From Lachnospiraceae bacterium (GTDB taxonomy: Bacteria; Bacillota; Clostridia; Lachnospirales; Lachnospiraceae): a DNA stretch of 54,660 nucleotides. Below are positions 806-44,498 of this stretch, piece by piece (the stretch's first letter is position 1; the number at the start of each line of letters is the position of its first letter). Location: the NCBI GenBank assembly GCA_017624835.1, contig JAGAMG010000046.1:109152-163811 (forward strand), read 5' to 3'. Under the pieces are notes generated by a model, which was given only the letters and a program-made list of their open reading frames with translations, did not search any database and was not told the origin of the DNA. The position numbers and the translations under genes were made by a program.

Positions 806-828
806 TTAGAAAAAAGGCGAAGAAAACA

Positions 829-2592
829 ATGGAAAAATGGTTTGTGGCAACTAAGAAGGCAGATTTTGATAAATGGGCAAGTAAGTTTCAGATTAGTCCG
901 GTGCTTGCCAGAATATTGCGGAATCGGGATTTAACAGAGGAGACTGAAGTGCAAAGGTTTTTGCATGGGACTTTGGAAGATTGTTATGCACCGGAGCTTA
1001 TGAAGGATATGGATAAGGCAGTGGAGATTCTGGTGCAGGCAATAGAGGAGAAGAAAGCTATTCGTATCATTGGGGATTATGATGTGGATGGCATCTGCTC
1101 CGCCTATATTTTGACAAAGGGTTTGCAGGTACTGGGAGCTGTGGTTGACACGGCGATTCCCCATAGAATCCATGATGGTTATGGGTTAAATGAGCATTTG
1201 ATTGAATTGGCAAAGGAAGATGGGATTGAACTGATTGTAACCTGTGATAACGGCATTGCGGCGGCACCGCAGATTGAATTAGCTACGACCCTTGGAATTG
1301 GGGTTATTGTAACGGATCATCATGAGGTGCCTTTTACAGAGGAAGGTGGAGTGCGGAAGGAAATGTTACCGCCCGCTCTTGCAGTGGTAGACCCCAAGCA
1401 GGAGGCCTGTAAATATCCTTTTAAAAGCATTTGTGGTGGAGTGGTGGCATATAAATTAATGCAGGCACTTGCCCAGCGAACCGATAGCGATGCATTGAAA
1501 AATGTTATGGAAGAGCTGTTGGAATTGGCAGCATTGGCTACTGTATGTGATGTGATGGAGCTTAGGGATGAGAATCGCATTATCGTAAAGGAAGGTCTTA
1601 GGAGACTGAAAAATACTCGAAATATAGGCTTAAGGGCATTGATGGAGGTTAATAGCGTGGAGCCTTCTAAGCTTAGTGCTTATCATTTGGGCTTTGTAAT
1701 CGGTCCCTGCCTGAATGCTACCGGACGATTGGATACGGCAAAAAGAGCCTTGGAGCTGTTGCAGAGTACCACCAAGGTGGATGCCATGAGTGCCGCCAGA
1801 GAACTTAAGGATTTGAATGACAGTCGTAAGAATCTGACCTTACAGGGAGTGCAGGAAGCGGAGCAGTACATCAAGGAGCATAGGGTGGAGCAGGATGATG
1901 TGATGCTTGTGTATTTGCCGGAGGTTCATGAGAGTCTTGCGGGAATTATAGCAGGAAGAGTACGGGAGAAATATAACCATCCGGTTTTTGTGCTGACCAA
2001 GGGAGAAGAGGGCGTGAAAGGCTCCGGGCGTTCCATAGAAAGCTATCACATGTATGAATCCATGACCCGGGTAAAGCAGTACTTCACTAAATATGGTGGG
2101 CATAAGCTGGCAGCAGGTTTGTCAATGAGAGAGGAAGATATTGAAGCGTTGCGCAAGGATTTAAATGCGGACAGTGGTCTTTCAGAGGATGATTTTATTC
2201 CCAGAGTACATATTGATGTGCCCATGCCGTTAAGCTATGCGGATGAGCAGCTTGCAGGAGAATTGGAATTGTTGGAGCCCTTTGGGGTGGGAAATCCCAA
2301 ACCTCTCTTTGCGCAAAAGGATTTATGCTTCCTGTCAGGCTTTAAAATGGGAGCAAATAAGAATTTTGCAAGGTTTAAGGTTCGCACCCCGGAAGGGGAT
2401 ATAAAGCAATTGGTCTTTTTTGGAGATTTGGAAAAGTTCGGTTTGTTCTTATGTGAAAAATACGGAGAGGACAGTGAAGATGCTTTATATGCCGGAAAAG
2501 GTGAATTTATGGTATCCGTGGTCTATCAGCTTTCTCTGAATACCTTCAGGGGGAAGACGGAATTGCAGTTTGTGATGCAGAATTACTGTTAA
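829..2592 (+). CDS. recJ: Single-stranded-DNA-specific 5'-3' exonuclease RecJ
   Basis: RecJ degrades single-stranded DNA 5' to 3' in recombination and mismatch or base-excision repair, using two metal ions in a DHH-family active site. The N-terminal DHH domain shows the DYDVDG motif (about residue 83), a CDNG motif and VTDHH (about residue 163). The DHHA1-type C-terminal part contains GGHKLAAG (about residue 423). At 587 aa it has the normal length for Firmicutes RecJ. The start has AAAAAGGCGAAG upstream. It is followed by a 554-nt stretch without a gene that contains a hairpin and a long palindrome. Confidence 0.95.
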   Translation: MEKWFVATKKADFDKWASKFQISPVLARILRNRDLTEETEVQRFLHGTLEDCYAPELMKDMDKAVEILVQAIEEKKAIRIIGDYDVDGICSAYILTKGLQVLGAVVDTAIPHRIHDGYGLNEHLIELAKEDGIELIVTCDNGIAAAPQIELATTLGIGVIVTDHHEVPFTEEGGVRKEMLPPALAVVDPKQEACKYPFKSICGGVVAYKLMQALAQRTDSDALKNVMEELLELAALATVCDVMELRDENRIIVKEGLRRLKNTRNIGLRALMEVNSVEPSKLSAYHLGFVIGPCLNATGRLDTAKRALELLQSTTKVDAMSAARELKDLNDSRKNLTLQGVQEAEQYIKEHRVEQDDVMLVYLPEVHESLAGIIAGRVREKYNHPVFVLTKGEEGVKGSGRSIESYHMYESMTRVKQYFTKYGGHKLAAGLSMREEDIEALRKDLNADSGLSEDDFIPRVHIDVPMPLSYADEQLAGELELLEPFGVGNPKPLFAQKDLCFLSGFKMGANKNFARFKVRTPEGDIKQLVFFGDLEKFGLFLCEKYGEDSEDALYAGKGEFMVSVVYQLSLNTFRGKTELQFVMQNYC

Positions 2593-2720
2593 TTTATGAA
2601 TTTAAAATTTTTTTTTAATTTTTAAATTAGAAATCGGACACATTCTGGACACATTTTACATGTAATATGTATTTCAGATAGTTGATGAACTCACTATCTC
2701 CCCCCCCCTCATAAGAAAAT

Positions 2721-2758
2721 CGCGAAAGTACCTCGGTGTATGCCGGGGTACTTTTGCG
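2721..2758. terminator. Strong hairpin downstream of recJ, probable terminator
   Basis: A 16-bp stem with two mismatches (CGCGAAAGTACC with its complement GGTACTTTTGCG) encloses a short GTATG-type loop. There is no long T run after it, only the T-rich right arm, so it is a less typical intrinsic terminator. A run of nine C lies at 2700-2708 just before it. Two copies of GGACACATT, 11 bp apart, occur at 2636-2655; no role is known for them. Confidence 0.5.
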
Positions 2759-2760
2759 TT

Positions 2761-3059
2761 GTGGGAAATGAAGGAAGGCAGAGGGCGTTGTTGGGGCTGG
2801 ACTGGCAAAGGAATTTGGGTCACGGAACTACGGACTAAGAAACTCTATATGTTCTGTGTAAGGTTGAGTTTGGCAACGCACACGGGGCAAATTCGCATCC
2901 ATGCTCAGTTGCCCCTTATTGCCCCATCCGTGGGGCAATAGTGCTGGGTGTTGCAGGCAGAACATAAGAGTTTCTAAAGTCCTTCGTAACGCGACCAAAC
3001 TCTCTTTTGCCAGCCCAGCCCCAACAACGCCCTCTGCCTTCTGCTAAATTTAGTCCCAC
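2761..3059. repeat. Long imperfect palindrome (about 95-bp arms), possible MITE-like element or structured RNA
   Basis: The left arm (about 2761-2856) and right arm (about 2961-3059) are reverse complements over nearly their whole length. The match is almost perfect at 2774-2802 with 3012-3041 and again near the inner ends (AGAAACTCT with its complement, GTTCTG with CAGAAC). The central part forms two nested small hairpins built on GGGGCAA/TTGCCCC, one of them an 8-bp perfect stem at 2928-2939 side. It is more GC-rich than its surroundings. The short open frame inside is not a gene. It fills the recJ-murE gap. Confidence 0.65.
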
Positions 3060-3146
3060 CATGCAATACAGAATTAAAATAAAAGGGTGGTAGAAAGTTT
3101 TAAAATGGAGTAAAATATAACAGAATATGTTTGAAAGGAAATATCT

Positions 3147-4622
3147 ATGAAATTAACGGATTTACTTGCAAAGTTAGATTATGAATGTATACAGGGCAGC
3201 TTAAATAGGGAAGTTCCCCAGGTGGTATATGATTCCCGAAAGGAAGCTAAGGATTTGGAAAAGGGCTGCCTGTTTATTTGTATTGAAGGGGCGGTTTTTG
3301 ACGGACATCAGTATGCGGCTGAGATGGTTAAAAAGGGTGCCGGAGTATTGGTGGTGTCCAAACCTGTGGATGGTGTTACCGATAAGGATGTTACTATTAT
3401 TCAGGTGAAAAATACCAGATATGCCATGGCATTTATTTCAGCAGCCTATTTTGGTAATCCTGCGGAAAAACTGCGTGTCATAGGAATTACAGGTACCAAA
3501 GGAAAAACTACAACTACTTATCTTGTGAAATCCATTTTGGAAAATGCAGGCTACAAGGTGGGTTTGGTGGGAACCATAGAAACCATTATCGGGGATACCC
3601 ATATTCATGCTTCCAATACCACACCGGAGTCCTATGTATTGCAGCAGTATTTTGCACAGATGGTAGAGGACGGATTGGATGCAGTGGTAATGGAGGTGTC
3701 CTCTCAGGCATTGATGCAGCATCGCACTCAGGGCTTTGTGTTTGATTATGGTATTTTTACCAATTTGGAGCCGGATCATATCGGACCTAATGAGCATGAA
3801 AGCTTTGAAGATTATATGGCCTGCAAGGGATTGCTTTTTAAGCAGTGTAAGGTTGGCATTGTGAATGGGGATGATGCCCATTGGGAGCAGGTGACAGCGG
3901 GGCATACCTGTGAGCTGGAAAGCTTTGGTTTGGGTCAGGAATGTGCCCTACGCGCAGAGAATATGGAATTGGTGCATAAGCCCGGGGAACTGGGAGTTTC
4001 TTTCCGGGTAAAAGGAGTAATGGATTTTACAGTGGAGGTTCCCACTCCCGGACGTTTTAGTGTATATAATGCTTTAACGGCTATTGCTATCTGCCGTCAT
4101 TTCAATGTGGAAGTGGAGGATATCAAAAAGGCATTATTGTCTGCTAAGGTAAAAGGGCGTATTGAGATGGTAAAGGTGTCCGATGATTTTACCCTTTTGA
4201 TTGACTATGCTCACAATGCCATGGCATTGGAGAGTTTATTGGCTACCTTAAAGGAGTATAAGCCCAATCGTCTGGTATGTCTTTTTGGTTGTGGAGGAAA
4301 TCGCTCCAGGGACAGACGTTTCGAGATGGGAGAGGTCAGCGGAAGGCTGGCTGATTTGACCATTATTACCTCCGATAATCCAAGATTTGAGGAACCTCAG
4401 GCAATTATTGAGGATATTAAGGTGGGAATCAGTAAAACGGATGGAAAATATGTGGAAATCTGTGACCGTAAGGAGGCAATTGCCTATGCCATTGCAAACG
4501 GAGAGACGGGAGATATTATTGTGCTGGCAGGAAAAGGGCATGAGGATTATCAGGAGATTAAAGGGGTAAAATATCCCATGGACGAAAGAGTCCTGATTCA
4601 GGAAATTTTGGAAGGATGTTAG
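3147..4622 (+). CDS. murE: UDP-N-acetylmuramoyl-L-alanyl-D-glutamate--2,6-diaminopimelate ligase MurE
   Basis: This cytoplasmic Mur ligase adds the third residue of the peptidoglycan stem peptide using ATP. Visible are the ATP loop GTKGKTTTTY (about residue 115), the central-domain motif with HNAMALE (about 355) and the C-terminal DNPR (about 413). DNPR is the known signature for meso-diaminopimelate rather than lysine, so the wall is predicted to be DAP-type. The length of 491 aa is normal. The gene lies outside the dcw cluster 13 kb away, just before priA (9-nt gap), with AAAGGA before its ATG. Confidence 0.96.
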   Translation: MKLTDLLAKLDYECIQGSLNREVPQVVYDSRKEAKDLEKGCLFICIEGAVFDGHQYAAEMVKKGAGVLVVSKPVDGVTDKDVTIIQVKNTRYAMAFISAAYFGNPAEKLRVIGITGTKGKTTTTYLVKSILENAGYKVGLVGTIETIIGDTHIHASNTTPESYVLQQYFAQMVEDGLDAVVMEVSSQALMQHRTQGFVFDYGIFTNLEPDHIGPNEHESFEDYMACKGLLFKQCKVGIVNGDDAHWEQVTAGHTCELESFGLGQECALRAENMELVHKPGELGVSFRVKGVMDFTVEVPTPGRFSVYNALTAIAICRHFNVEVEDIKKALLSAKVKGRIEMVKVSDDFTLLIDYAHNAMALESLLATLKEYKPNRLVCLFGCGGNRSRDRRFEMGEVSGRLADLTIITSDNPRFEEPQAIIEDIKVGISKTDGKYVEICDRKEAIAYAIANGETGDIIVLAGKGHEDYQEIKGVKYPMDERVLIQEILEGC

Positions 4623-4631
4623 GAGGCAGCT

Positions 4632-6881
4632 GTGGAGAAGCAGTATGCAGATATTATTGTTGATATTTCACATGAAAAATTAGATAAGCCCTTTCAATAC
4701 CGGGTGCCGGAAAGGCTCCGGGAGATTTTAGAGCCGGGCATGTGTGTGAATGTGCCTTTTGGAAATGCCAATAAATTGATAAAGGGTTATGTGGTGGGAA
4801 TTTCTGACAGATGTAAATTCGACCCTGCCCGAACCAAGGATATTGCAGGAATCGTGCAAAAGGATGTGGGCGTAGAGGATAAAATGATTGAACTGGCAGC
4901 CTGGATAAAGAGAAATTATGGTTCTACCATGATTCAGGCGTTAAAGACAGTTTTACCGGTTCGGAAATCTGTAAAAAAGCTGGAACATAAAAGGATAGAG
5001 GTTTTGATGAACAGGGAAGAATTGATTTCTCTGTTGGGAGAGTGTGAACGAAAGAAGCAGACTGCCAAGGCAAGACTTTTGAAAGCTTTGTTGGAACAGG
5101 AAGAAATTCCTTATGAGTGGATTACCGGAAAATTGGGAATATCCGCCGCTACAGTAAATAGTCTGGAAAAAGCAGGTGCTTTAAGGGTAGTGATTACAGA
5201 AGGATATCGTAATCCGGTAAAGCTACAAATAAACCCAGAGGAAAGAAAGGCGTTAAGTAAGGAACAAAGTCATATTGTGGAAGAGGTTTTAAAAGATTTC
5301 GACAATGGAAACAGAGGAACCTATTTGATTCATGGTATTACCGGAAGCGGAAAGACGGAAGTCTATATGCAGCTGATTGAAGAGGTGGTAAGCAGGGACA
5401 AACAGGCAATTGTATTGATACCGGAAATTGCCCTGACTTATCAGACGCTGCTTCGTTTTTATAAGCGGTTTGGGGAGCGGGTCAGTGTGATGAATTCTAC
5501 CCTTTCAGCAGGAGAGAAATATGATCAGTGTGAGAGAGCCAAAAAGGGAGAAATTGATGTAATTATCGGTCCTCGTTCGGCGTTATTTACCCCCTTTCCC
5601 AATATTGGACTGATAGTAATAGATGAGGAGCATGAGGGAAGCTATAAAAGTGAGGGCACACCCAAGTACCATGCCAGAGAAACAGCCGTAGAGGTGGCAA
5701 GGCTTCATAATGCCAGTGTAATTCTTGGCTCGGCAACACCCTCCATGGAAAGCTATTATCGAGCCTCTGAAGGGGAATATCGTTTATTTTCCCTGACAGA
5801 GCGACTTACAGGAGGAACTTTGCCAAGGGTACATACCGTGGATTTGCGAGAGGAATTAAAGGCTGGCAATCGCTCTATTTTCAGTAGAAAACTGCAGGAG
5901 CTTTTGGTGGAGCGTTTGCAACGGGGAGAACAGAGTATGCTGTTCCTAAATCGGAGAGGGTATGCAGGTTTTATTTCCTGCCGTGCCTGTGGACAGGTAA
6001 TGAAATGTCCTCATTGTGATGTATCCCTCTCGGAGCACACGGACGGGCGGTTGGTATGTCACTACTGTGGATATGCAGAGCCAAGACCAAGAGTGTGTCC
6101 TGAATGTGGCTCCAAATATATTTCAGGTTTTAAGGCAGGAACCCAGCAGATAGAAGAGAAGCTAAAGGAAATGTTTCCCGGTGTAAGAACCCTTCGCATG
6201 GATGCGGATACCACGAAGACTAAGGACAGCTATGAGGCTATTTTGTCAGCCTTTTCCAATGGGGAGGCAGACGTGCTGATAGGAACTCAAATGATAGTAA
6301 AGGGGCATGATTTCCCGAAGGTTACGCTGGTGGGAGTTTTGGCAGCGGATTTGTCCCTGGGTGTGGGGGATTATCGTTCAGGAGAGCGAACCTTTCAATT
6401 GTTAACCCAGGCGGTGGGCAGAGCAGGACGGGGAGAGCTTCCCGGGGAGGCAGTAATACAGACCTACCAGCCGGAGCACTATGCAGTGGTTCATGCTGCC
6501 AATCAGGATTATATCAGCTTTTATGAAGAGGAAATTCTTTATCGGGAAATGCTGGATTATCCCCCTGCGGCGCATATGCTGGCTGTACAAATTTATGCAT
6601 CCGTGGAAGAAAATGGAAAACAGCTTGCACAGAGGCTGGCAGACGTGGTAAAGTCTATGATAGACGTTTCACAGCCGGTAGCTGACAGAATCACAGTAAT
6701 TGGACCGGCACCGGCTTCCATAGGAAAAGTTAATGATATTTTCAGATTTGTTTTCTATGTTAAGCATCAAAAATATGATATGCTGGTACAAATAAAGGAT
6801 AAATTGGAAGAAAAATTACAATTCTGGCAGCCCAGGTACGAGACGGTTCAGTTTGATTTTGACCCTATGAATACCCTGTGA
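4632..6881 (+). CDS. priA: Primosomal protein N' (replication restart helicase PriA)
   Basis: PriA recognises stalled forks and reloads the replicative helicase. The start is GTG with GGAGG 7 nt upstream. Domains in order are the N-terminal DNA-binding region, a helicase core with Walker A GSGKTE (about residue 237) and DEEH (about 333), eight paired cysteines for zinc (CRACG, CPHC, CHYCG, CPEC; about 455-500), and the C-terminal helicase half with QAVGRAGRG. The length of 749 aa is typical. It sits in the usual Firmicutes order before def and fmt. Confidence 0.96.
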   Translation: MEKQYADIIVDISHEKLDKPFQYRVPERLREILEPGMCVNVPFGNANKLIKGYVVGISDRCKFDPARTKDIAGIVQKDVGVEDKMIELAAWIKRNYGSTMIQALKTVLPVRKSVKKLEHKRIEVLMNREELISLLGECERKKQTAKARLLKALLEQEEIPYEWITGKLGISAATVNSLEKAGALRVVITEGYRNPVKLQINPEERKALSKEQSHIVEEVLKDFDNGNRGTYLIHGITGSGKTEVYMQLIEEVVSRDKQAIVLIPEIALTYQTLLRFYKRFGERVSVMNSTLSAGEKYDQCERAKKGEIDVIIGPRSALFTPFPNIGLIVIDEEHEGSYKSEGTPKYHARETAVEVARLHNASVILGSATPSMESYYRASEGEYRLFSLTERLTGGTLPRVHTVDLREELKAGNRSIFSRKLQELLVERLQRGEQSMLFLNRRGYAGFISCRACGQVMKCPHCDVSLSEHTDGRLVCHYCGYAEPRPRVCPECGSKYISGFKAGTQQIEEKLKEMFPGVRTLRMDADTTKTKDSYEAILSAFSNGEADVLIGTQMIVKGHDFPKVTLVGVLAADLSLGVGDYRSGERTFQLLTQAVGRAGRGELPGEAVIQTYQPEHYAVVHAANQDYISFYEEEILYREMLDYPPAAHMLAVQIYASVEENGKQLAQRLADVVKSMIDVSQPVADRITVIGPAPASIGKVNDIFRFVFYVKHQKYDMLVQIKDKLEEKLQFWQPRYETVQFDFDPMNTL

Positions 6882-34624: not shown

Positions 34625-35374
34625 ATGGTTATCAAAATGATTTTAAAAGTGGCAATACCGGGAAAAATGAAGTTAAAAGTGATTCAGAGAGAGAATCTTC
34701 TTTTCCAAAAGAAAGGAGAGATTCATTATATAGGAGGAGCAGAGGTGCTTCCCCCACCCCTTGAACTGGAGCAGGAAAATAAGGTAATTAATGATTTGGG
34801 TACGGAATATGAGGATGAAGCAAAATCTATTTTGATAGAACATAATTTGCGTCTGGTAGTGTACATAGCCAAAAAATTTGACAATACCGGTGTGGGAGTG
34901 GAGGATTTGATTTCCATTGGAACGATTGGTCTGATTAAATCGATAAACACCTTTAAGCCGGACAAAAATATTAAGCTTGCTACCTATGCATCACGCTGTA
35001 TCGAAAATGAAATTTTAATGTATCTGCGCAGAAATAATAAAACAAGGCTTGAAGTATCCATAGATGAGCCATTAAATGTGGATTGGGATGGGAATGAATT
35101 ATTGCTGTCGGACATTTTAGGGACGGATGAGGATGTTATTTATAAGGGAATTGAGGATGAAGTGGAGAGAAAGCTTTTGATGGGAGCTGTCAGCAAGCTT
35201 TCAGAACGTGAGAAAACCATTGTAAAGCTGCGCTTTGGTCTGGGCAGCAGGGATGGACAGGAAATGACTCAAAAAGAGGTTGCGGAGCTTTTGGGGATTT
35301 CTCAATCCTATATTTCCAGATTGGAAAAAAAGATTATGCGCCAGTTAAAGAAGGAAATGAGTAATCATATTTAG
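34625..35374 (+). CDS. sigE: RNA polymerase sporulation sigma factor SigE (pro-sigmaE)
   Basis: This is the early mother-cell sigma factor. The N-terminal pro-sequence of about 30 residues leads into the processing region with [12 protein letters not shown], as in known pro-sigmaE. Region 2 ([14 protein letters not shown], with [17 protein letters not shown]) and region 4 (helix-turn-helix near [20 protein letters not shown]) are intact. The length is 249 aa. In most Clostridia sigG follows directly; here an accessory block intervenes and sigG is inverted at 43,370-44,152. Confidence 0.96.
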
Positions 35375-36337: not shown

Positions 36338-36422
36338 TGGTTGTGTGTGAAGTTATAATGATTCTGGGATAAAATCTTGTGTGATTTTGTTTGTTGTTAA
36401 AGATATAGCATAATAGAGAGAG

Positions 36423-36479
36423 TTAAAGGGAGTGTCGAAAAATAGCTAAATTTTAGTTGTTTTTCGACACTCCCTTTAA
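36423..36479. terminator. Bidirectional terminator between vanZ-like and XRE genes
   Basis: The stem TTAAAGGGAGTGTCGAAAAA pairs with its exact complement at 36460-36479, with the apical core AATAGCTAAATTTTAGTTG, giving T-rich tails on both strands. The right arm overlaps the stop codon of the convergent XRE gene. It shares its apical core with the terminator at 33652. Confidence 0.88.
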
Positions 36480-36748
36480 TTGTTTTTAGGGGCTTCAAAT
36501 TTTGCGTTTTGTAGAAGGTCATCCGGTGTTGTCCCTAATATTTCCGCGAAAATTGATACTTCATAGTCAGGAATAAACCGCGTTCCTAATTCCAATTTGA
36601 TGATGGCAGTTTCTGTGATGAAGTCATAGCCAGCAAGCTGAGCTTTAATAGCGAGTTGCTTTTGAGTTAGACGCTGCTGTTTGCGTAATTCACGAATGCG
36701 TATACCACATATATTTTTTCTGTTTTCATTGTACCAAAATGCTTTCAT
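36476..36748 (-). CDS. XRE-family helix-turn-helix regulator, probably of the NRPS operon
   Basis: A 90-aa protein with a Cro/CI-type helix-turn-helix: IRIRELRKQQRLTQKQLAIKA, recognition helix near FITETAIIKLELG, then a dimerisation-like segment ILGTTPDDLL. There is no sensor domain. The ribosome binding site AAGGGAGA precedes the start. It is divergent from the NRPS gene, and two identical 15-bp dyads in the shared 134-nt gap are its likely operators, one only 29 nt from its own start codon. Confidence 0.88.
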   Translation of the reverse strand: MKAFWYNENRKNICGIRIRELRKQQRLTQKQLAIKAQLAGYDFITETAIIKLELGTRFIPDYEVSIFAEILGTTPDDLLQNAKFEAPKNN

Positions 36749-36776
36749 GCATGCATCTCCCTTCTACTATATGCAA

Positions 36777-36791
36777 CTGCTTAACAAGCAG
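36777..36791. promoter_or_regulatory. Operator-like dyad, copy 1
   Basis: CTGCTTAACAAGCAG has 6-bp inverted arms around AAC. It lies just upstream of the predicted NRPS -35 element and 29 nt from the XRE start codon. An identical copy is 52 bp away. Confidence 0.8.
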
Positions 36792-36798
36792 ATTTGTA

Positions 36799-36827
36799 TT
36801 GATTATAAGTGCTGTAAATGATAAAAT
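36799..36827 (+). promoter_or_regulatory. sigmaA-type promoter of the NRPS operon
   Basis: TTGATT (36799-36804), a 17-nt spacer and TAAAAT (36822-36827) lie exactly between the two dyads. The leader to the ATG at 36883 would be about 50 nt. Confidence 0.72.
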
Positions 36828-36828
36828 A

Positions 36829-36843
36829 CTGCTTAACAAGCAG
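36829..36843. promoter_or_regulatory. Operator-like dyad, copy 2
   Basis: This is the same 15 bases as copy 1 (CTGCTTAACAAGCAG), placed directly after the -10 element so that it covers the expected transcription start. A protein bound here would block RNA polymerase. Confidence 0.8.
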
Positions 36844-36882
36844 GTTTTAGAAATAATGGAAAGATTGGAACGGGAGGAACAA

Positions 36883-39800
36883 ATGAAGAAACAGCATTTA
36901 ACCACACCACAACAGAATATTTGGAATTTGCAAAAATATTATGAAGATACAGCAATTTCGAATCTTTGCGGGGCGATTTTCTATAAAGAGAAACGGGATA
37001 GTGCGCTGCTACAGCAGGCGATTCGCCAATTTATAAAAAGTCAAAGCGGTCTGAGACTACGTTTTTGTGAGGAGGATGAGCCAAAGCAATATGTGTCAGA
37101 GGAAATGGAAGATGCAATTCCGATTATGAAATTTTCTTCGAAGGAAGAGTTTGATTGCTATGCAAATGAATTTGCAAAGAAACCATTAGGTCTTATAGAG
37201 CAACCAATGTATCGATTTGTGGTATTTCAAATTGAGAACCAAAGCGGTATTTTAGTAGTGCTCAGCCATTTGATTGCGGATGCATGGACCTTTGGGCTGA
37301 TGGCAAAGAAAGTGGATATGGCATATCATATTTTGGCGGAAGGTACAAGCTGCTCTCTTGTTCAAGGGAATTATCTGGATTTTATCAATTCGGAGGAGGA
37401 GTACATTGTTTCTGAACGTTATGCAAAGGACAAAAAATATTGGGAAGAGAAATATGTCATTCGTCCAGAGGAAAGCCCAATTAAATTATGCCCTACTTCT
37501 TCAAAATCTATTAAGGCAAAAAGATATACTAAAAAATTACCTTTAGCATTAGAAGGTAAAATACATACATTCTGTAAAGAGAATCCGATAACAGCGGCTG
37601 TTTTATTTGAAACAGCCCTTATGATATATTTAGCCCAGATTAATAGGGAAAATAGAACCATAACAATTGGTGTTCCAGTATTAAATCGTAGCAATGCAAA
37701 GGAAAAGAATATTGCCGGGATGTTTGTTTCCACAATGCCTCTAACGGTAACTATAGAAGATTCTTTGACTGTGTCTGAATTAGCCAAAAGAATTACCAAG
37801 GGACATATGGAATTATTTCGACATCAAAAATATTCTTACGCCAATATTTTGAAATCTCTTCGAGAAAAACAGAATTTTTCCGGCAATCTGTATGATGTTA
37901 TGATTAGCTATCAAAATGCAAAGACAAATACCGGAGCAGATACCAAATGGTATTCCAATGGTTATAGCGAGGTACCTTTTGTGATGCATATAGATAATCG
38001 TGATGAGCAGGAATGTCACACCATTAACATAGATTATCAAACAGTAGTATTCAAGGAAGAAGAGATAGAATATCTTATTAAGCGGTTGGAATATATTTTG
38101 GAACAGATTGTGGAAGAGAAAGACAAAGCGGTTCGGAAGATTAGTATTGTTCCAAAGCAGGAAACTGAAAAAATGCTGTATGATTTTAATGACACCTATG
38201 TGGATTATCCAAGGGATAAGTGCGTCCATGAGCTGTTTACAGAACAGGCAAAGAGGACGCCGGACAGCATAGCACTTATATTTGAGGATAAGAAGTTTAC
38301 TTATAGGCAGTTGGATGAGATGTCCAATTCCTTGGCGCATTTTCTGCGCAATAAAGGTATAAATCCCAATGATGTAGTACCGATTATTGCGAAGAGAAGT
38401 TGGCATGTGATAGTAGCAATGCTTGGAGTATTGAAGGCTGGTGGGGCATATATGCCGGTAGACCCGAGTTATCCTGTGGATAGAATTACATACATGATGG
38501 AGATTGCAGAGAGTAAATTTGCATTGATATATGGATATGAAAAAAAGCTGAATATAGAATCTATGGACTTGGGAGAATTTGATTATACGTTAGATAAATC
38601 GGAAGTGAAAAATGTAAATAATCCAAAGGATTCTGTATATGTAATTTTTACATCTGGTTCTACGGGAGAGCCGAAAGGGATAACAATTTCACATCAAAAT
38701 TTAGGGAATTTTGTTTGTAACAATGAAAAGAATAGATATCAGAATTTTGCGATTGAAAATGGAAAAGTTATATTAGCAGATACGATATTTACATTTGATA
38801 TATCAGTTTTTGAGATTTATATGTCTTTGTTAAATGGAATAAGAATTGTTTTAACAAATGAGAATGAAAATAATGTTTCTAAATATATTGCTAATTTAAT
38901 AATTCAAAATTCTATTGATATTTTACAATGCACACCAACAAAACTGCAAATGCTTATCAATAATGATGATTTTAGAAGGGCATTGAATCGTATTAAGGTA
39001 ATTATGCTTGGTGCGGAGGAGTTAAAGAATGAGATATATCATAAGGTATCTCATTATACCAATGCTATCATTTTTAATGGATATGGACCTACTGAAATTA
39101 CAATTGGAGCTTCCTTCAAAAAAGTTACAGATACAGACATCACCATCGGCAAACCCATCGCCAACACTCAAATCTACATCCTCGGCCAAGACAACATTCC
39201 CCTTCCAATTGGTGTGGCAGGAGAACTTTGCATTGCCGGAGATGGTGTGGGCAAAGGCTACCTAAAACGCCCGGAGTTGACCGCGGAAAGATTTGTACCC
39301 AATCCCTTTGCCACGGACACTAATCACCATGGAAAGATAATGTATCGCACCGGAGATTTGGCACGTTGGCGGGCAGATGGAGAAATAGAATATCTTGGAC
39401 GCATTGACACTCAGGTTAAAATACGTGGACTTCGTATTGAGCTTGGAGAGATTGAAAGCGTTATGAGCAGTATGGAGGGAATCGGACTGACGGCAGTTGC
39501 AGATAAGCGTGATGAGAATAATCGTCAATATTTGGTAGGCTATTATACAGCGGATGCTCTCATTGACGAAAAGAAGCTGCGGAAGCATTTGTCAGCAAAA
39601 CTGCCTAAATATATGGTGCCCAATTATTTTATGCATTTGGATGTTATGCCCATGACACCTAGCGGAAAGACTGATAGAAAAAATCTTCCCGTGCCGGACT
39701 TTACAGTGCAGACAACAGAATATGTAGCTCCGGTTACGGAACGGGAAAGGAAGCTGTGCCATTTGCTGGAGGAATTATTGCATGTGGAGCAAATTGGAAC

Positions 39801-41169
39801 AGCGGACGACTTCTTTGAGCTTGGTGGGGACAGCTTGACAGCTATTGAGTATGTGGCAAAAGCACATGGTCAAGGGATTGATTTCACCCTGCAGAATGTA
39901 TTTGATTATCCTACTGTACAGTCATTATGTAATTTTATAGAGAAAGGGGATGGGGAAGGTATTCATTTCCAGGCAGAGGATTTTGCAAAATATAAAAAAC
40001 TGTTTGCAAAAAATGAAATAGATAAATCCTTTGAACCACACAAGCAAAAACTGGGAAATGTTTTACTGACCGGAGCTACCGGATTTTTGGGTGCCCATAT
40101 ATTGGATGCGTTAATGAAGGAGGAAGAAGGGAAAATATACTGTCTGGTACGAAGTGGAAAGCAGGAAGACCGTCGTGGAAGATTACAGGAAACATTACAG
40201 TATTATTTTGGAAATCGGTACGATAATGAAATAAATAAGAGAATTATCCCCATAGTAGGAGATATTGAGCAGGAAGATTTGGGGGAGTGCATGCCTGAAG
40301 ATGTACAGACAGTGATTCATGCGGCTGCAAGTGTGAAGCACTATGGAGCATATGATTATTTTCAACGCGTAAATGTGGAAGGAACCCGACATGTTATCAA
40401 GCATGCGAAATCAGTTGGAGCAAAGCTGATTCATATTTCTACCTTAAGTGTCAGTGGTAATAGTTTGGCAGAGGATTTTAGTGTTTATCGTTCTGAGGAA
40501 GAAAAACATTTTTATGAAACCTCATTTTATATAGGTCAGCCATTGGATAACGTATATGTCCGCAGCAAATTTGAAGCGGAAAGAGCAGTTTATGATGCAA
40601 TGCTTGAGGGATTAGAGGTAAAAGTTATTCGTGTGGGCAACTTGACCAATCGAGCTTTTGATTATAAGTTCCAGCCTAATTTTACAGAAAATGCATTTCT
40701 TACAAGGGTAAAAGCGGTATTGGAATTTGGTTTGTTCCCGGATTACCTGATGCCTCTGTATGCTGAATTTTCGCCAATAGATTTGACTGCAGATGGGATT
40801 ATAAAAATTGCCCAATATGCAGACAGGCAATGTATATTCCACTTGAACAGTAACCGCCCTATTTATTTTGAACGCTTTCTAAAGATAGTACACGAATTGG
40901 GAATTGCTATGAAGGTGGTAGAGGGGAAGGAGTTTAATGAAGCATTACAGCAGACCATCAAGCATAGTGGTACAGAATACATTTTTGAAGCATTCCAAAA
41001 TGATATGGATGAGAATGGCAGACTTGTATATGACAGTAATATTCGTATCGAAAATGATTTCACAGTATGGTTCTTGGCGAAGGTAGGTTTTGCGTGGAAT
41101 GAAACGGATGAAAAATATATAAAGGGGTATATAGAGTATTTCCGAAGTTTGGGCTATCTGGAGGTGTAA
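36883..41169 (+). CDS. Single-module nonribosomal peptide synthetase, C-A-T-R
   Basis: Predicted 1428 aa. Condensation domain (1-430): the HHxxxDG motif reads SHLIADA, keeping the catalytic second His (129) and Asp (133). Adenylation domain (about 440-940): TSGSTGEPKG near 588, YGPTE near 734, YRTGDL, and A10 Lys 929. Carrier domain: LGGDSL with Ser 984. Reductase domain (about 1055-1428): NAD(P)H loop GATGFLG (1064) and Tyr1225/Lys1229, which release the product as aldehyde or alcohol. The hand-read specificity code is D-I-F-Q-I-L-G-I-G-K; no amino acid is assigned. The start is set by GGGAGG 5 nt upstream of 36883. The 38,680-39,090 segment is unusually AT-rich. Confidence 0.93.
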   Translation: MKKQHLTTPQQNIWNLQKYYEDTAISNLCGAIFYKEKRDSALLQQAIRQFIKSQSGLRLRFCEEDEPKQYVSEEMEDAIPIMKFSSKEEFDCYANEFAKKPLGLIEQPMYRFVVFQIENQSGILVVLSHLIADAWTFGLMAKKVDMAYHILAEGTSCSLVQGNYLDFINSEEEYIVSERYAKDKKYWEEKYVIRPEESPIKLCPTSSKSIKAKRYTKKLPLALEGKIHTFCKENPITAAVLFETALMIYLAQINRENRTITIGVPVLNRSNAKEKNIAGMFVSTMPLTVTIEDSLTVSELAKRITKGHMELFRHQKYSYANILKSLREKQNFSGNLYDVMISYQNAKTNTGADTKWYSNGYSEVPFVMHIDNRDEQECHTINIDYQTVVFKEEEIEYLIKRLEYILEQIVEEKDKAVRKISIVPKQETEKMLYDFNDTYVDYPRDKCVHELFTEQAKRTPDSIALIFEDKKFTYRQLDEMSNSLAHFLRNKGINPNDVVPIIAKRSWHVIVAMLGVLKAGGAYMPVDPSYPVDRITYMMEIAESKFALIYGYEKKLNIESMDLGEFDYTLDKSEVKNVNNPKDSVYVIFTSGSTGEPKGITISHQNLGNFVCNNEKNRYQNFAIENGKVILADTIFTFDISVFEIYMSLLNGIRIVLTNENENNVSKYIANLIIQNSIDILQCTPTKLQMLINNDDFRRALNRIKVIMLGAEELKNEIYHKVSHYTNAIIFNGYGPTEITIGASFKKVTDTDITIGKPIANTQIYILGQDNIPLPIGVAGELCIAGDGVGKGYLKRPELTAERFVPNPFATDTNHHGKIMYRTGDLARWRADGEIEYLGRIDTQVKIRGLRIELGEIESVMSSMEGIGLTAVADKRDENNRQYLVGYYTADALIDEKKLRKHLSAKLPKYMVPNYFMHLDVMPMTPSGKTDRKNLPVPDFTVQTTEYVAPVTERERKLCHLLEELLHVEQIGTADDFFELGGDSLTAIEYVAKAHGQGIDFTLQNVFDYPTVQSLCNFIEKGDGEGIHFQAEDFAKYKKLFAKNEIDKSFEPHKQKLGNVLLTGATGFLGAHILDALMKEEEGKIYCLVRSGKQEDRRGRLQETLQYYFGNRYDNEINKRIIPIVGDIEQEDLGECMPEDVQTVIHAAASVKHYGAYDYFQRVNVEGTRHVIKHAKSVGAKLIHISTLSVSGNSLAEDFSVYRSEEEKHFYETSFYIGQPLDNVYVRSKFEAERAVYDAMLEGLEVKVIRVGNLTNRAFDYKFQPNFTENAFLTRVKAVLEFGLFPDYLMPLYAEFSPIDLTADGIIKIAQYADRQCIFHLNSNRPIYFERFLKIVHELGIAMKVVEGKEFNEALQQTIKHSGTEYIFEAFQNDMDENGRLVYDSNIRIENDFTVWFLAKVGFAWNETDEKYIKGYIEYFRSLGYLEV

Positions 41170-41182
41170 TAAGGAAAAACAC

Positions 41183-41791
41183 ATGTATAAAGTGTATTTG
41201 TTTCGACAGCTGGAGCGAGTGCCTGAGCAATATATTTCTTTGGCGTTACCTATACTACCAAAAGAGCGTTATCAAAAGGCAATACATTACCGACAGTCAA
41301 GAGACAGAAAAAATTGTATTATTGCCTATCTATTATTAAAACAAGGGCTAAAGGAATGTTTTCAGATAACAGACTTTACGCTGCAATATGAAACCTATGG
41401 AAAACCTTATTTACCGGAATACCTCAATGTTTACTTCAATATCAGCCACTGCAATCTGGGCTGCGCTGTGGCAGTGGCTGATATCCCCATAGGGATAGAT
41501 TATCAGGACATCCGTCCTTTTTCCTGGGAGATAGCTAGTCGAGTCTGTTGCCCGCAAGAACTAAAAATATTGGAACAAAGCTCAAACAAAGCAACTGCCT
41601 TTACCCGCATATGGACAAGGAAAGAAAGCTACCTTAAAATGTATGGTCAAGGCATATGCTGCGACCTGACTCAAATAAATACTATCCACAACAAATTTAT
41701 ACAAACTGTAGATTATGGAGGAGGGATATTATCAATATGTATGGATGATCCTTTTTACCTTTTGAACTATAGCTTCAATGACAGAACATAG
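41183..41791 (+). CDS. 4'-phosphopantetheinyl transferase (Sfp type)
   Basis: The enzyme moves the phosphopantetheine arm from CoA to the carrier-domain serine, here surely Ser984 of the NRPS encoded 13 nt upstream. Family motifs are visible: GIDYQDIRP (metal-binding Asp, about residue 105) and WTRKESYLKMYGQG (Lys-Glu pair, about 145). At 202 aa it is near the size of Sfp-type enzymes. The dedicated transferase means the pathway is self-contained for activation. Confidence 0.9.
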   Translation: MYKVYLFRQLERVPEQYISLALPILPKERYQKAIHYRQSRDRKNCIIAYLLLKQGLKECFQITDFTLQYETYGKPYLPEYLNVYFNISHCNLGCAVAVADIPIGIDYQDIRPFSWEIASRVCCPQELKILEQSSNKATAFTRIWTRKESYLKMYGQGICCDLTQINTIHNKFIQTVDYGGGILSICMDDPFYLLNYSFNDRT

Positions 41792-41888: not shown

Positions 41889-41911
41889 ATAGGAAAGTGA
41901 GGACGATGTTC

Positions 41912-42733
41912 ATGGGTAATCAAACATTAGATTTGAGGATGCAGGAGAACTTACAGGCAGTCGCAAAACTGCGTCTTTTGGATGATGACCTAATGACTTT
42001 AGTATTTGATAAGAATATTGAAGCAACAGAGTTATTACTGAATATTCTCTTACAGCGTAAGGATTTAAAGGTGTTAGAGGTTGTTGCTCAGAGAGAATAT
42101 AAAAATCCTATGGCTGGTGGGCGTTCTATTACAATTGATATTTATGCCAAGGATGCGGATGATAAAATTTATGATGTTGAAGTTCAAAGATCCGATCGGG
42201 GAGCAGATTTCCACCGGGCAAGATTTCACAGCAGCATGGTTGATGCCAAGATGCTGAAGGAGAAGCAGGATTTCAAGGACATTCATGATTCCTATGTAAT
42301 CTTCATTACGGAGAATGATGTGGTAGGCGCCGGATTATCTTTGTATCATGTGGAAAGAGTGATTAAAGAAACAGGTGCTGATTTTGGAGATGGTTCGCAT
42401 ATTATATATGTGAATGGTAGTTATAAGAATAACGAAGACCCGATTGGTAAGCTGATGCATGATTTTAGATGCACAAGTTCTGTGGATATGTTTTATCCAT
42501 TGTTGGCAAAGCAGGTCAAGTATTTTAAAGAGACAGAAGGAGGTAGGGAAATCGTGTGCAAGACTTTTGAAGATTTAGCTGAGAAGAGAGCAAATGAAAG
42601 GCTTTTTGAAGAGAAAAAGATGTTGGCGAAGAGTATGCTTATGAGAGGTAGAGGAACTGTAGAGCAGATTGCAGAGGATTTGGAACTGCCTGTTGAAGTG
42701 GTAGAAGAGCTGGTAAATTTGCAACCGGTATAA
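41912..42733 (+). CDS. Rpn/PD-(D/E)XK nuclease family protein ("putative transposase" family)
   Basis: The N-terminal half has the PD-(D/E)XK core of this family: a first strand and helix with RLLDDDLMTLVFD, then ITIDIYAKDADDKIYDVEVQ with Asp and Glu-x-Gln catalytic positions (about residues 74-92). The C-terminal tail is helical and reads like the repeat helix (RGRGTVEQIAEDLELPVEVVEELV). Members often occur in many copies and have been linked to RecA-independent recombination. The start at 41912 fits GTGAGGA 8 nt upstream. Confidence 0.85.
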   Translation: MGNQTLDLRMQENLQAVAKLRLLDDDLMTLVFDKNIEATELLLNILLQRKDLKVLEVVAQREYKNPMAGGRSITIDIYAKDADDKIYDVEVQRSDRGADFHRARFHSSMVDAKMLKEKQDFKDIHDSYVIFITENDVVGAGLSLYHVERVIKETGADFGDGSHIIYVNGSYKNNEDPIGKLMHDFRCTSSVDMFYPLLAKQVKYFKETEGGREIVCKTFEDLAEKRANERLFEEKKMLAKSMLMRGRGTVEQIAEDLELPVEVVEELVNLQPV

Positions 42734-43369: not shown

Positions 43370-44152
43370 CTACGCACTCAAATAATTCCGCATAGTCCTA
43401 AGCGCATTCTTCTCCAACCTGGACACCTGTGCCTGAGAAATCCCGATAGCCTCAGCCACCTCCATCTGGGTTTTCCCTTCAAAGAATCGCAGGGACACAA
43501 TTTCATGCTCTCTGGGGTTCAATTTTTTCATGGCTTCGCTTAAGGACAGATGCTCCAGCCAGGTTTCCTCTTTATTTTTTTTGTCACTAATCTGATCCAT
43601 AACATAAAGTGTATCTCCGCCATCGGTGTAAACCGGTTCGTAGAGACTGCAGGGAGACTGTATGGCATCCATGGCGTAGACAATTTCCTCCTTGGAGATG
43701 CCCACTTCCTTGGCAATTTCTTCAATGGTAGGATCCTTTAGATTTTTTCTGGTTAAGGTATCCCTTGCATAAATCGCTTTGTAGGCGGTATCCTTCAAGG
43801 AACGGGAAACACGGATACTGCTGCTGTTGTCCCGAAGGAAACGGCGAATTTCTCCGATAATCATGGGTACCGCATAGGTGGAAAATTTTACATTCAGGGA
43901 AGAATCAAAATTGTCAATTGCCTTAATCAGACCGATACATCCGATTTGAAACAAATCATCCACATTCTCGTTGCTGGAAGCAAAACGTTTGATGACACTG
44001 AGAACCAGTCGGAGATTTCCTTCGATATAGGTTTCCCTTGCCTGCTTATCACCTGCTTCTATCTGTGCAAAGAGTGCTTCCTTTTCTTCTGCCTTTAAAA
44101 GCGGCAGCTTTGCTGTATTTACACCACAGATTTCAACTTTACCCTGTGCCAT
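43370..44152 (-). CDS. sigG: RNA polymerase sporulation sigma factor SigG
   Basis: The late forespore sigma factor begins MAQGKVEICGVNTAKLPLL, the hallmark N terminus of sigmaG. Region 2 (DLFQIGCIGLIKAIDNFD, STYAVPMIIGEIRRFLRD) and region 4 (MEVAEAIGISQAQVSRLEK) are intact; the length is 260 aa as usual. AGGAGG lies 7 nt before the start. It is transcribed opposite to sigE and ymxH, unlike the usual co-directional sigE-sigG pair, and has a sigmaG-type promoter of its own. Confidence 0.96.
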   Translation of the reverse strand: MAQGKVEICGVNTAKLPLLKAEEKEALFAQIEAGDKQARETYIEGNLRLVLSVIKRFASSNENVDDLFQIGCIGLIKAIDNFDSSLNVKFSTYAVPMIIGEIRRFLRDNSSSIRVSRSLKDTAYKAIYARDTLTRKNLKDPTIEEIAKEVGISKEEIVYAMDAIQSPCSLYEPVYTDGGDTLYVMDQISDKKNKEETWLEHLSLSEAMKKLNPREHEIVSLRFFEGKTQMEVAEAIGISQAQVSRLEKNALRTMRNYLSA

Positions 44153-44190
44153 TTTGCGTCCTCCTAAGATAAAAATGTTTTCGTAATGGG

Positions 44191-44220
44191 TAGTATGCAC
44201 TTTTGGGTGGCAGGATATAC
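44191..44220 (-). promoter_or_regulatory. sigmaG/sigmaF-type promoter of sigG
   Basis: On the minus strand GTATA (44220-44216) and CATACTA (44197-44191) are 18 nt apart, an exact match to the sigmaG consensus GHATR-N18-CATWHTA. The predicted leader to the start codon at 44152 is about 32 nt. Confidence 0.75.
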
Positions 44221-44264
44221 CTGTTTTTGCATACACTAAAGTAAAAGAAATTTTGGAGTGCAAG

Positions 44265-44498
44265 ATGCTGCTTTCAGAGTTGAAATGTAAGGATGTTATC
44301 AATATAAGGGACTGTAAAAAGCTGGGGAAAATTTGTGATATTGAGTTTGATAAGTGCAGTGGCTGTATTTGTAAAATCATGATTCCGGGAGATAGTAAGG
44401 TGTTGGGTTTCCTGCGGTGTGAGCCGGATATTATCATTCCCTACAAGGATATAAAACAAATCGGACCGGATATCATTTTGGTGGACATTTGCCGATAA
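44265..44498 (+). CDS. YlmC/YmxH family sporulation protein (PRC-barrel)
   Basis: A 77-aa protein built as one PRC-barrel-like domain: MLLSELKCKDVINIRDCKKLGKICDIEF-type opening with CRCEPDIIIPYKDIKQIGPDIILVD at the end. The family sits next to sigG or nrdR in many spore formers; its molecular role is not known. The ATG at 44265 has GGAG 6 nt upstream. It is divergent from sigG over 112 nt. Confidence 0.85.
   Translation: MLLSELKCKDVINIRDCKKLGKICDIEFDKCSGCICKIMIPGDSKVLGFLRCEPDIIIPYKDIKQIGPDIILVDICR

What the first reader, a model, noticed from the sequence alone, without database searches (positions are those of the whole stretch)
36476..41791. Self-contained one-module NRPS pathway (C-A-T-R) with its own transferase and regulator
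The sequence shows one synthetase with a condensation, adenylation, carrier and reductase domain, a phosphopantetheinyl transferase 13 nt later and a divergent XRE regulator. No second module, thioesterase, transporter or tailoring gene is present. By known chemistry a terminal reductase releases an aldehyde or alcohol. A lone C domain at the N terminus suggests acylation of a single amino acid from an acyl-CoA or acyl-carrier donor. The likely product is a small N-acyl amino aldehyde, possibly a protease inhibitor or signal, as known for gut clostridial peptide aldehydes made by larger NRPSs. The first His and the Gly of HHxxxDG are changed (SHLIADA), so the C domain may be specialised.
Basis: partly seen in the sequence, partly recalled or inferred. 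Interest (0 to 1): 0.78.

Follow-up and report, generated by a model that had tools for sequence, protein, structure and literature searches.

The report
One-module peptide-aldehyde enzyme, shrunken
A bacterium, probably of the Lachnospiraceae, carries a one-module assembly-line enzyme that looks like a shortened version of two-module enzymes built like those that make fatty-acylated dipeptide aldehydes (protease inhibitors) in the gut, so it probably makes an even smaller acylated amino-acid aldehyde.

Summary
In detail: one intact C-A-T-R synthetase (best start 36883, not 36739), a phosphopantetheinyl transferase 13 nt downstream, a divergent XRE regulator, and no other condensation domain found in this 85%-complete genome. 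The C domain is 72% identical to the first C of a two-module (C-A-T-C-A-T-R) synthetase in the same genus and 23-25% to its second C. On trees it lies with RzmA-Cs, a proven acyl-loading starter C, apart from every internal C domain tested. SHLIADA is a family trait: xHxxxDA occurs in 17 of 31 first-position C domains and in 0 of 27 internal ones. C comes from module 1 (210:20 informative sites) and T from module 2 (38:2), so the enzyme looks like an in-frame contraction of a two-module synthetase. The two-module locus also carries an acyl ligase and ACP; both are absent here, and another one-module locus keeps a broken ligase fragment. Twin palindromes flank the promoter, with similar geometry but other sequence in relatives. 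Most likely product: an N-acyl amino aldehyde, its acyl drawn from primary metabolism. The chemistry is untested. One-module C-A-T-R enzymes recur across this bacterial order, so this is a new variant of a known kind.

The parts
36476..36748 (-). XRE-type regulator, divergent from the synthetase
   Evidence: Pfam HTH_19 34.5 bits. Divergent HTH genes also lie upstream of the homologous synthetases in L035, L036, L045 and L037; L038 has none there. 33% identical over 67 residues to the L035 one, no match to the L037 one.
36777..36791 (.). operator-like palindrome 1, CTGCTTAACAAGCAG
   Evidence: CTGCTT-N3-AAGCAG with 1 mismatch allowed: 3 in the window (two exact here, one with a mismatch at 3831) against 0.20 expected from shuffles. 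CTGCTTAACAAGCAG with 1 mismatch allowed: only these 2 in the genome.
36799..36827 (+). sigma-70-like promoter TTGATT-N17-TAAAAT between the two palindromes
   Evidence: Pattern match; TTGATT-N17-TATAAT sits in the same place in L035, L036 and L045.
36829..36843 (.). operator-like palindrome 2, identical copy 52 bp from the first
   Evidence: L035, L036 and L045 carry TGCAAT-N6-ATTGCA twice, 53-54 bp apart, around the same kind of promoter; L036 and L045 are near copies of one locus.
36883..41169 (+). C-A-T-R nonribosomal peptide synthetase, 1428 aa
   Evidence: start chosen from homologues, ribosome-site-like stretch and promoter position.
36883..38178 (+). starter-type condensation domain (SHLIADA at 37264-37284)
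   Evidence: 72% identical to C1 of the two-module relative, 25% to C2. In the first-position clade and on the same side as RzmA-Cs. His129, Asp133, Ala134, Trp135 invariant in 10 of 10 aligned.
38236..39687 (+). adenylation domain; its core differs from both A domains of the two-module relative (44-45% identity) while its flanks match both (79-87%)
   Evidence: Pfam; segment identities.
39751..39939 (+). carrier (T) domain, of module-2 origin
   Evidence: Pfam; informative sites 38:2 for module 2.
40057..41160 (+). terminal thioester reductase domain
   Evidence: TIGR01746 over residues 1107-1474 of the ORF, 188 bits, below its cut-off of 213; Pfam NAD_binding_4 145 bits; aligns with the AusA reductase 4f6l and with 6vtj, with GATGFLG and YxxSK aligned.
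41183..41791 (+). Sfp-like phosphopantetheinyl transferase
   Evidence: 64% identical to the PPTase of the two-module locus.
36415..36485 (.). strong hairpin between the VanZ-like gene and the XRE gene, likely a two-way terminator
   Evidence: Folding energy -42.9 kcal/mol, z -12.2.

Best explanation
The gene is a contracted two-module synthetase of the N-acyl-dipeptide-aldehyde kind. An ancestor with C1-A1-T1-C2-A2-T2-R lost T1, C2 and one A domain in frame, by recombination in or beside its similar A domains, leaving C1-A-T2-R. The proposed mechanism is as follows. The PPTase charges T. A loads one amino acid. The starter-type C transfers a fatty acyl group to its amino group. R reduces the thioester with NAD(P)H and releases an N-acyl amino aldehyde (or alcohol). 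Since the dedicated acyl ligase and ACP are gone from the locus, the acyl comes from primary metabolism (acyl-CoA or fatty-acid-synthesis ACP). The XRE protein represses the promoter by binding the two palindromes that flank it. Shown: architecture, mixed-module ancestry, absence of ligase and ACP relative to the two-module locus, repeated twin-palindrome geometry. Inferred: every catalytic step, the acyl source, the product and repression.
For: C and T come from different modules of one relative: informative sites C 210:20 for module 1 and T 2:38 for module 2 against G032; the same direction against L038, C 146:28 and T 8:27. T1 and C2 of G032 have counterparts in L038, L040 and L047 (T1 clade 100; C2 clade 100), so the two-module state is old. 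A1 and A2 of G032 are 81-93% identical by segment. The window C is among 26 first-position C domains (SH-aLRT 100) and stays with RzmA-Cs and OaaC-type C domains apart from 27 other rows (SH-aLRT 99). RzmA-Cs used acyl-CoA in vitro and its cluster has no ACP or ligase gene (PMC7804268, passages). The two-module locus reads XRE, NRPS, acyl ligase, ACP, PPTase. Two one-module C-A-T-R genes have an AMP-ligase and a PP-binding ACP next door, L069 and L106. L035 keeps a frameshifted ligase fragment right after its one-module gene. C and R are equally constrained against G032, dN/dS 0.083 and 0.082. Twin palindromes.
Against: No product or activity was measured. Among starter-clade enzymes, 14 of 16 one-module loci have no ligase within the fetched flanks against 1 of 6 multi-module loci, so many of these enzymes may not be acylating. 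First position does not always mean starter type: 5 of 31 first-position C domains fell on the internal side. RzmA-Cs leads the PDB hits by about 1 bit (76.0-77.2 against 75.8), and a profile of ten starter C domains scores the BacC and TycC structures higher (155, 152) than RzmA-Cs (121). RzmA-Cs is a long branch in the tree. [quoted passage not shown] The dS values are near 2, so dN/dS is rough and covers the whole path since the split, not the time since contraction. The A-core looks swapped, so the exact junction cannot be placed. Sequence kinship to a characterised peptide-aldehyde cluster was not tested.
Confidence: 0.55

Rival explanations
1. The C domain is idle. The enzyme works like the C-less A-T-R 'ATRed': it releases a free amino aldehyde, and two of these condense and oxidise to a pyrazine.
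For: No ligase or ACP at the locus, and no close ligase homologue found in the genome. An A-T-R minimal NRPS gives a pyrazine this way (PMC7586950, passages). Most one-module loci of the clade lack a ligase.
Against: C keeps His129 and Asp133 and is as constrained as R. In the first C tree the window's end branch (0.17) is close to the two-module relative's (0.13), so there is no sign of runaway decay. RzmA and HolA clusters also lack ligase and ACP genes yet acylate (PMC7804268, passages).
Confidence: 0.17
2. The single module is used twice (two protein copies or one acting iteratively), giving a dipeptide aldehyde and then a pyrazinone, like two-module enzymes.
For: C-A-T-C-A-T-R enzymes make dipeptide aldehydes or pyrazinones (PMC8518294, PMC12327764, PMC10979478, passages). 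In G032 the two A domains are similar also in the core (82%), so a homodipeptide was perhaps the ancestral product.
Against: The internal-type C2 is exactly what is missing; the retained C is of the acyl-loading side of the tree.
Confidence: 0.1
3. The locus is a decaying remnant with no product.
For: Module, ligase and ACP are missing. Sister loci show decay: L035 has a broken ligase fragment and L045 a synthetase in pieces, which could also be an assembly fault.
Against: The window's synthetase, PPTase and regulator frames are intact, dN/dS is low outside the A-core, and the promoter-palindrome layout is intact.
Confidence: 0.1
4. The C domain takes a small acyl or aminoacyl group from an unlinked enzyme that is missing from this incomplete assembly.
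For: The genome is 84.8% complete.
Against: 9 of 17 genomes bearing a one-module gene have no other C domain, 6 of them at least 91% complete.
Confidence: 0.08

Closest known systems
Gut clostridial C-A-T-C-A-T-R peptide-aldehyde synthetases (N-octanoyl-Met-Phe-H, BGC0001686; ruminopeptin)
   Same: Domain types and order of the two-module relative, terminal reductase; the two-module relative has an acyl ligase and ACP.
   Different: One module only; no ligase or ACP; predicted to make an N-acyl amino aldehyde with a single residue. Their sequences were not compared. Guo 2017 is not held; its content is taken from passages in PMC8518294, PMC12327764 and PMC10979478.
Aureusimine synthetase AusA of Staphylococcus aureus
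   Same: Best NCBIfam whole-protein resemblance; reductase domain aligns.
   Different: 794 of the 2500 bits required; the model is 2373 positions long and the window matches only positions 983-2368.
RzmA-Cs / HolA-Cs starter C domains
   Same: First C, acyl donor without a dedicated ligase or ACP gene (PMC7804268, passages); same side of the C tree.
   Different: Highest identity of RzmA-Cs to any row of the tree is 23%; HHxxxDG rather than SHLIADA.
Fatty acid amide enzymes OaaA/OaaACP/OaaC of Coprococcus eutactus
   Same: Ligase plus ACP plus non-canonical xHxxxD(S/A) C domain (PMC13142362, two sections and passages); OaaC-type C domains fall on the starter side of the tree.
   Different: OaaC is free-standing and uses free amines; here C is fused to A-T-R.
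ATRed and other A-T-R minimal NRPSs
   Same: Single module with terminal reductase releasing an aldehyde (PMC7586950, passages).
   Different: No C domain; ATRed gives a pyrazine.

Membership tests
NRPS with terminal reductase (peptide-aldehyde synthetase) | A, T and thioester-reductase domains in order with intact motifs | tested here: met
   the thioester-reductase model TIGR01746 matches end to end but at 188 of 213 bits. GGDS carrier motif, GATGFLG and YxxSK in R read from the sequence (motif roles recalled).
NRPS with terminal reductase (peptide-aldehyde synthetase) | Releases an aldehyde | not testable with these tools
   Needs enzyme assay or LC-MS.
C-A-T-C-A-T-R dipeptide-aldehyde family | Two modules | tested here: not met
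   One C, A and T; one C domain in the genome.
C-A-T-C-A-T-R dipeptide-aldehyde family | Common descent with a C-A-T-C-A-T-R enzyme | tested here: met
   C from module 1, T from module 2 of G032, R 80% identical.
C-A-T-C-A-T-R dipeptide-aldehyde family | Sequence kinship to a characterised cluster (BGC0001686, rup) | not tested
   No such sequence was fetched.
Starter (lipoinitiating) C domain | First position and phylogenetic grouping with acyl-loading C domains, not elongation C domains | tested here: met
   only one proven starter (RzmA-Cs) and an OaaC-type pair served as references.
Starter (lipoinitiating) C domain | Sequence closer to known starter C than to elongation C in searches | tested here: inconclusive
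   Single-sequence search favours RzmA-Cs by about 1 bit; the clade profile favours BacC and TycC.
Starter (lipoinitiating) C domain | Catalytic second His and Asp | tested here: met
   Invariant in 10 of 10.
AusA equivalog | NCBIfam cut-off 2500 bits | tested here: not met
   794 bits.
FAA-type (OaaC) C domain | Free-standing C without downstream carrier | tested here: not met
   C is fused to A-T-R.

The most novel reading that the evidence does not exclude
Lachnospiraceae, some from animal guts, repeatedly shorten acyl-dipeptide-aldehyde synthetases to single-module acyl-amino-aldehyde synthetases by deleting one T, the internal C and one A, at different junctions. They drop the dedicated acyl ligase and ACP, swap the amino-acid-selecting A-core, and keep a promoter clamped by two operators. 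The result would be a natural series of minimal acyl-aldehyde signals or protease inhibitors fed directly from the cell's acyl pool, and a natural template for module deletion in NRPS engineering.
Probability: 0.4. Interest if true: 0.65.

Novelty: new variant of a known kind. Interest (0 to 1): 0.5.

Why it matters
Acylated dipeptide aldehydes from a Clostridium cluster inhibit cathepsins and proteasomes in vitro and induce ER stress in a human gut cell line (PMC8518294, passages). A one-module version would be a very small route to such reactive lipids. The sequences also record what looks like a successful natural module deletion with both ancestral modules still readable in a congener; engineered NRPSs often lose yield (PMC13142362), and an engineered one-module fusion to a reductase gave no product where the two-module one did (PMC7586950, passages). 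The loss of ligase and ACP makes a testable point: does a starter C that evolved beside an ACP switch to acyl-CoA?

Tried and rejected
Rejected: the C domain as an internal-type (elongation) domain; SHLIADA as a sign of inactivity; a second module elsewhere (none found in this incomplete genome); ATG 36739 as the start; AusA membership; window, L035 and L036 as one clade on the T-R tree (AU p 0.0003; I chose the group after seeing a first tree, and recombination of the T-R part would give the same result).

Led nowhere: the exact recombination point in A (informative sites in A are few or mixed); the amino acid selected (pocket letters read by eye at recalled positions match no code I could verify, so no prediction is made); synteny around the sigma-factor genes (one search found the SigE-like gene and another sigma factor, not the neighbour I wanted); Guo et al. 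2017 (not held); papers naming C-A-T-R enzymes in gut Clostridia (listing of 39 papers, passages of three of them, none on point; 8 of 10 paper searches used); structure prediction of the C domain (unavailable).

Rows dropped before counts: L034, L037, L044, L071 as duplicates and L045 as broken were left out of the C, T-R and A sets, and C stretches under 330 residues too. The T set left out L034, L044, L071 and L033 but kept L037; its tree shows 22 of 58 T rows. The tree left out 6 rows: the first C domains of L113, L114 and L116 and three internal ones of L116. In one search the first C of L113 and L114 fell on the internal side and that of L116 on the starter side. The 27 rows on the far side are 24 internal and 3 first-position C domains (L074, L075, L080). 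The ligase count uses 22 of the 26 starter-clade synthetases; four without a reductase domain (L039, L076, L115, L116) were left out. Its ligase labels were entered by hand; flanks are short for some (L111 0.2 and 2.2 kb, L119 3.0 and 1.0 kb, L069 0.7 kb and L038 1.0 kb on one side), and the loci are related, so the Fisher p of 0.004 overstates.

Full report
OBSERVATION. The window holds one intact synthetase with Condensation, AMP-binding, PP-binding and thioester-reductase domains, once each and in that order. A PPTase begins 13 nt after its stop and an XRE-type gene runs the other way. The listed start, 36739, is too early: a TTGATT-N17-TAAAAT promoter-like site lies at 36799-36827, a GGGAGGA stretch precedes ATG 36883, and homologues begin with the same MxxxHLTTPQ. 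The enzyme is then 1428 aa. G+C is 37-38% over 36-42 kb against 40-46% in the rest, apart from 18-20 kb, also 38%.

NO PARTNER MODULE. In this genome (84.8% complete) the only other hits to the synthetase are two adenylate-forming reading frames, and PF00668 occurs once. I searched 19 genomes with PF00668; 17 bear a one-module gene. In 9 of these 17 it is the only C domain found. Six of the 9 are at least 91% complete (G203, G139, G743, G048, G572, G735); one (G844) holds the broken gene of L045. The other 8 have 2 to 21 C domains.

WHERE IT COMES FROM. G032 (locus L033/L037) has a two-module C-A-T-C-A-T-R enzyme. Against it the window C is 72% identical to C1 and 23-25% to C2; T is 88% identical to T2 and about 41% to T1; R is 80% identical; A is equally close to both. 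At sites where the two modules differ, C goes 210:20 to module 1 and T 38:2 to module 2; against the more distant two-module L038 the counts are 146:28 and 27:8. T1 of G032, L038, L040 and L047 form one group (100), as do their C2 domains (100), so the T1-C2 block is old and the short form is most simply a loss. A1 and A2 of G032 are 81-93% identical by segment, a ready place for recombination. The core of the window's A domain is only 44-45% identical to either, while its flanks are 79-87%: the substrate-selecting part looks exchanged. L035 and L036 are one-module relatives of the same make-up. Their junctions look different: measured against L038, the N-part of A goes to module 1 in the window (50:11) and L036 (39:15) but is undecided in L035 (25:24), whose A-core goes to module 2 (39:13); the window's core is undecided (22:19). 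On a T-R tree a single clade of the window, L035 and L036 is rejected (AU p 0.0003), and at least 4 changes between one and two modules are needed over 11 scored rows of 15. So shortening probably happened more than once, unless pieces moved by recombination or a two-module form was regained.

WHAT IS MISSING BESIDES A MODULE. The G032 locus reads XRE (divergent), NRPS, an AMP-ligase most like fatty-acyl ligases, an acyl carrier protein, PPTase. The window has XRE, NRPS, PPTase. No close ligase homologue was found in the genome; the best is a piecewise match (47% over 87 residues) in a frame of 565 aa. L035 keeps the first 78 residues of the ligase, frameshifted, directly after its synthetase. 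L036 has neither ligase nor PPTase in the 3.7 kb downstream. Among 22 starter-clade synthetases with a reductase domain, a ligase lies nearby in 5 of 6 multi-module and 2 of 16 one-module loci (related loci, uneven flanks). The two one-module loci with ligase and ACP (L069, L106) show that C-A-T-R with its own acyl supply exists.

THE C DOMAIN. On a tree of 58 C domains from these loci, the window C lies in a group of 26 first-position domains (SH-aLRT 100); the other side holds all 27 internal domains and 5 first-position ones. With RzmA-Cs and two free-standing C domains added, and 6 rows left out, the window stays with both additions on one side (28 rows, SH-aLRT 99) against 27 rows (24 internal, 3 first-position). 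RzmA-Cs is a long branch there. The free-standing pair comes from G493 and G527; the G527 one lies beside an ACP and an AMP-ligase and matches PDB 12kh at 341 bits, which the preprint gives as OaaC (PMC13142362). xHxxxDA occurs in 17 of 31 first-position C domains; 13 of the 31 have HHxxxDG, and so do all 27 internal ones. The preprint reports (D/H)HxxxD followed by Ser 42%, Ala 36% or Gly 17% in fatty acid amide C domains (section read). So SHLIADA marks an acyl-type C rather than a dead one. Against this: the PDB lead of RzmA-Cs is about 1 bit, and a ten-member profile scores BacC and TycC above RzmA-Cs.

CONSTRAINT. dN/dS between window and G032 is 0.083 for C and 0.082 for R, with dS near 2 and 1.5. 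C is therefore not visibly freer than R, but the figure is rough and covers the whole path since the split.

REGULATION. CTGCTTAACAAGCAG stands twice, 52 bp apart, on either side of the promoter, and nowhere else in the genome even with one mismatch; a looser form with any spacer has one further near-match in the window. In L035, L036 and L045 the same place has TGCAAT-N6-ATTGCA twice, 53-54 bp apart, around TTGATT-N17-TATAAT; L036 and L045 are near copies, so these are two independent cases at most. The regulators of L036 and L045 are 80% identical to that of L035 and share its palindrome; the window's is 33% identical to it over 67 residues and has another palindrome. All are HTH proteins. 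G032's regulator matches neither, and no such palindrome pair was seen before its synthetase. Regulator and operator thus appear to change together while the geometry stays, which fits a promoter clamped by two operator-bound repressors. Binding was not tested.

MECHANISM AND RIVALS. Best: PPTase primes T, A loads one amino acid, C adds an acyl group from the cell's own pool, R releases an N-acyl amino aldehyde or alcohol (0.55). Rivals: idle C giving pyrazines (0.17), iterative use (0.10), decay (0.10), unseen donor enzyme (0.08). RzmA and HolA acylate without cluster-borne ligase or ACP (PMC7804268, passages), so the missing genes do not exclude acylation.

KNOWN OR NEW. C-A-T-C-A-T-R enzymes make dipeptide aldehydes or pyrazinones; N-octanoyl-Met-Phe-H comes from BGC0001686 and ruminopeptin is an N-acyl dipeptide aldehyde (PMC8518294, PMC12327764, PMC10979478, passages). 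I did not compare sequences with those clusters. One-module C-A-T-R genes were not rare in these searches: 16 in the starter clade, from 61 relatives, samples of 397 family and 392 order genomes, 138 genus genomes (overlapping sets, strict E-value limits in the last three) and one collection scan. I found no paper describing a gut one-module C-A-T-R product in eight searches, but the key 2017 paper was not held, so 'not in print' is not claimed. I rate it a new variant of a known kind: ordinary parts, with an unusually clear record of natural module loss.

Noticed in passing
L134 (G527) 324-3778; L133 (G493) 3295-4749: Free-standing OaaC-type C domains in the same genus; in G527 it is followed by an ACP and an AMP-ligase, i.e. 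a fatty acid amide type trio.
   Followed up: partly
L045 3733-7597: A near copy of the L036 one-module synthetase in another assembly is in pieces, with parts missing; decay or an assembly fault.
   Followed up: no
L035 14292-14524: Frameshifted remnant of an acyl ligase right after a one-module synthetase.
   Followed up: yes
L118, L119, L120, L123, L117: A separate, divergent group of one-module C-A-T-R enzymes in the same genus and family, with HHxxxDG and no ligase in the fetched flanks; function unknown.
   Followed up: no
window 39850-41166: Closest solved structure for the reductase part is 6vtj (237 bits), ahead of AusA (159); I recall 6vtj as an archaeal PCP-R didomain, which would hint at exchange with methanogens.
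   Followed up: no
window 36415-36485: Very stable near-perfect hairpin (-42.9 kcal/mol, z -12.2) between the converging VanZ-like and XRE genes.
   Followed up: partly
window 41897-42733: PD-(D/E)XK nuclease/transposase-family gene (Pfam PDDEXK_2) next to the PPTase; may relate to how the low-G+C block arrived.
   Followed up: no
window 43370-44437 and 34625-35374: A sigma-70-family gene on the minus strand lies 8 kb from a SigE-like gene (name recalled) on the plus strand, and G+C skew drops there; possible inversion.
   Followed up: no
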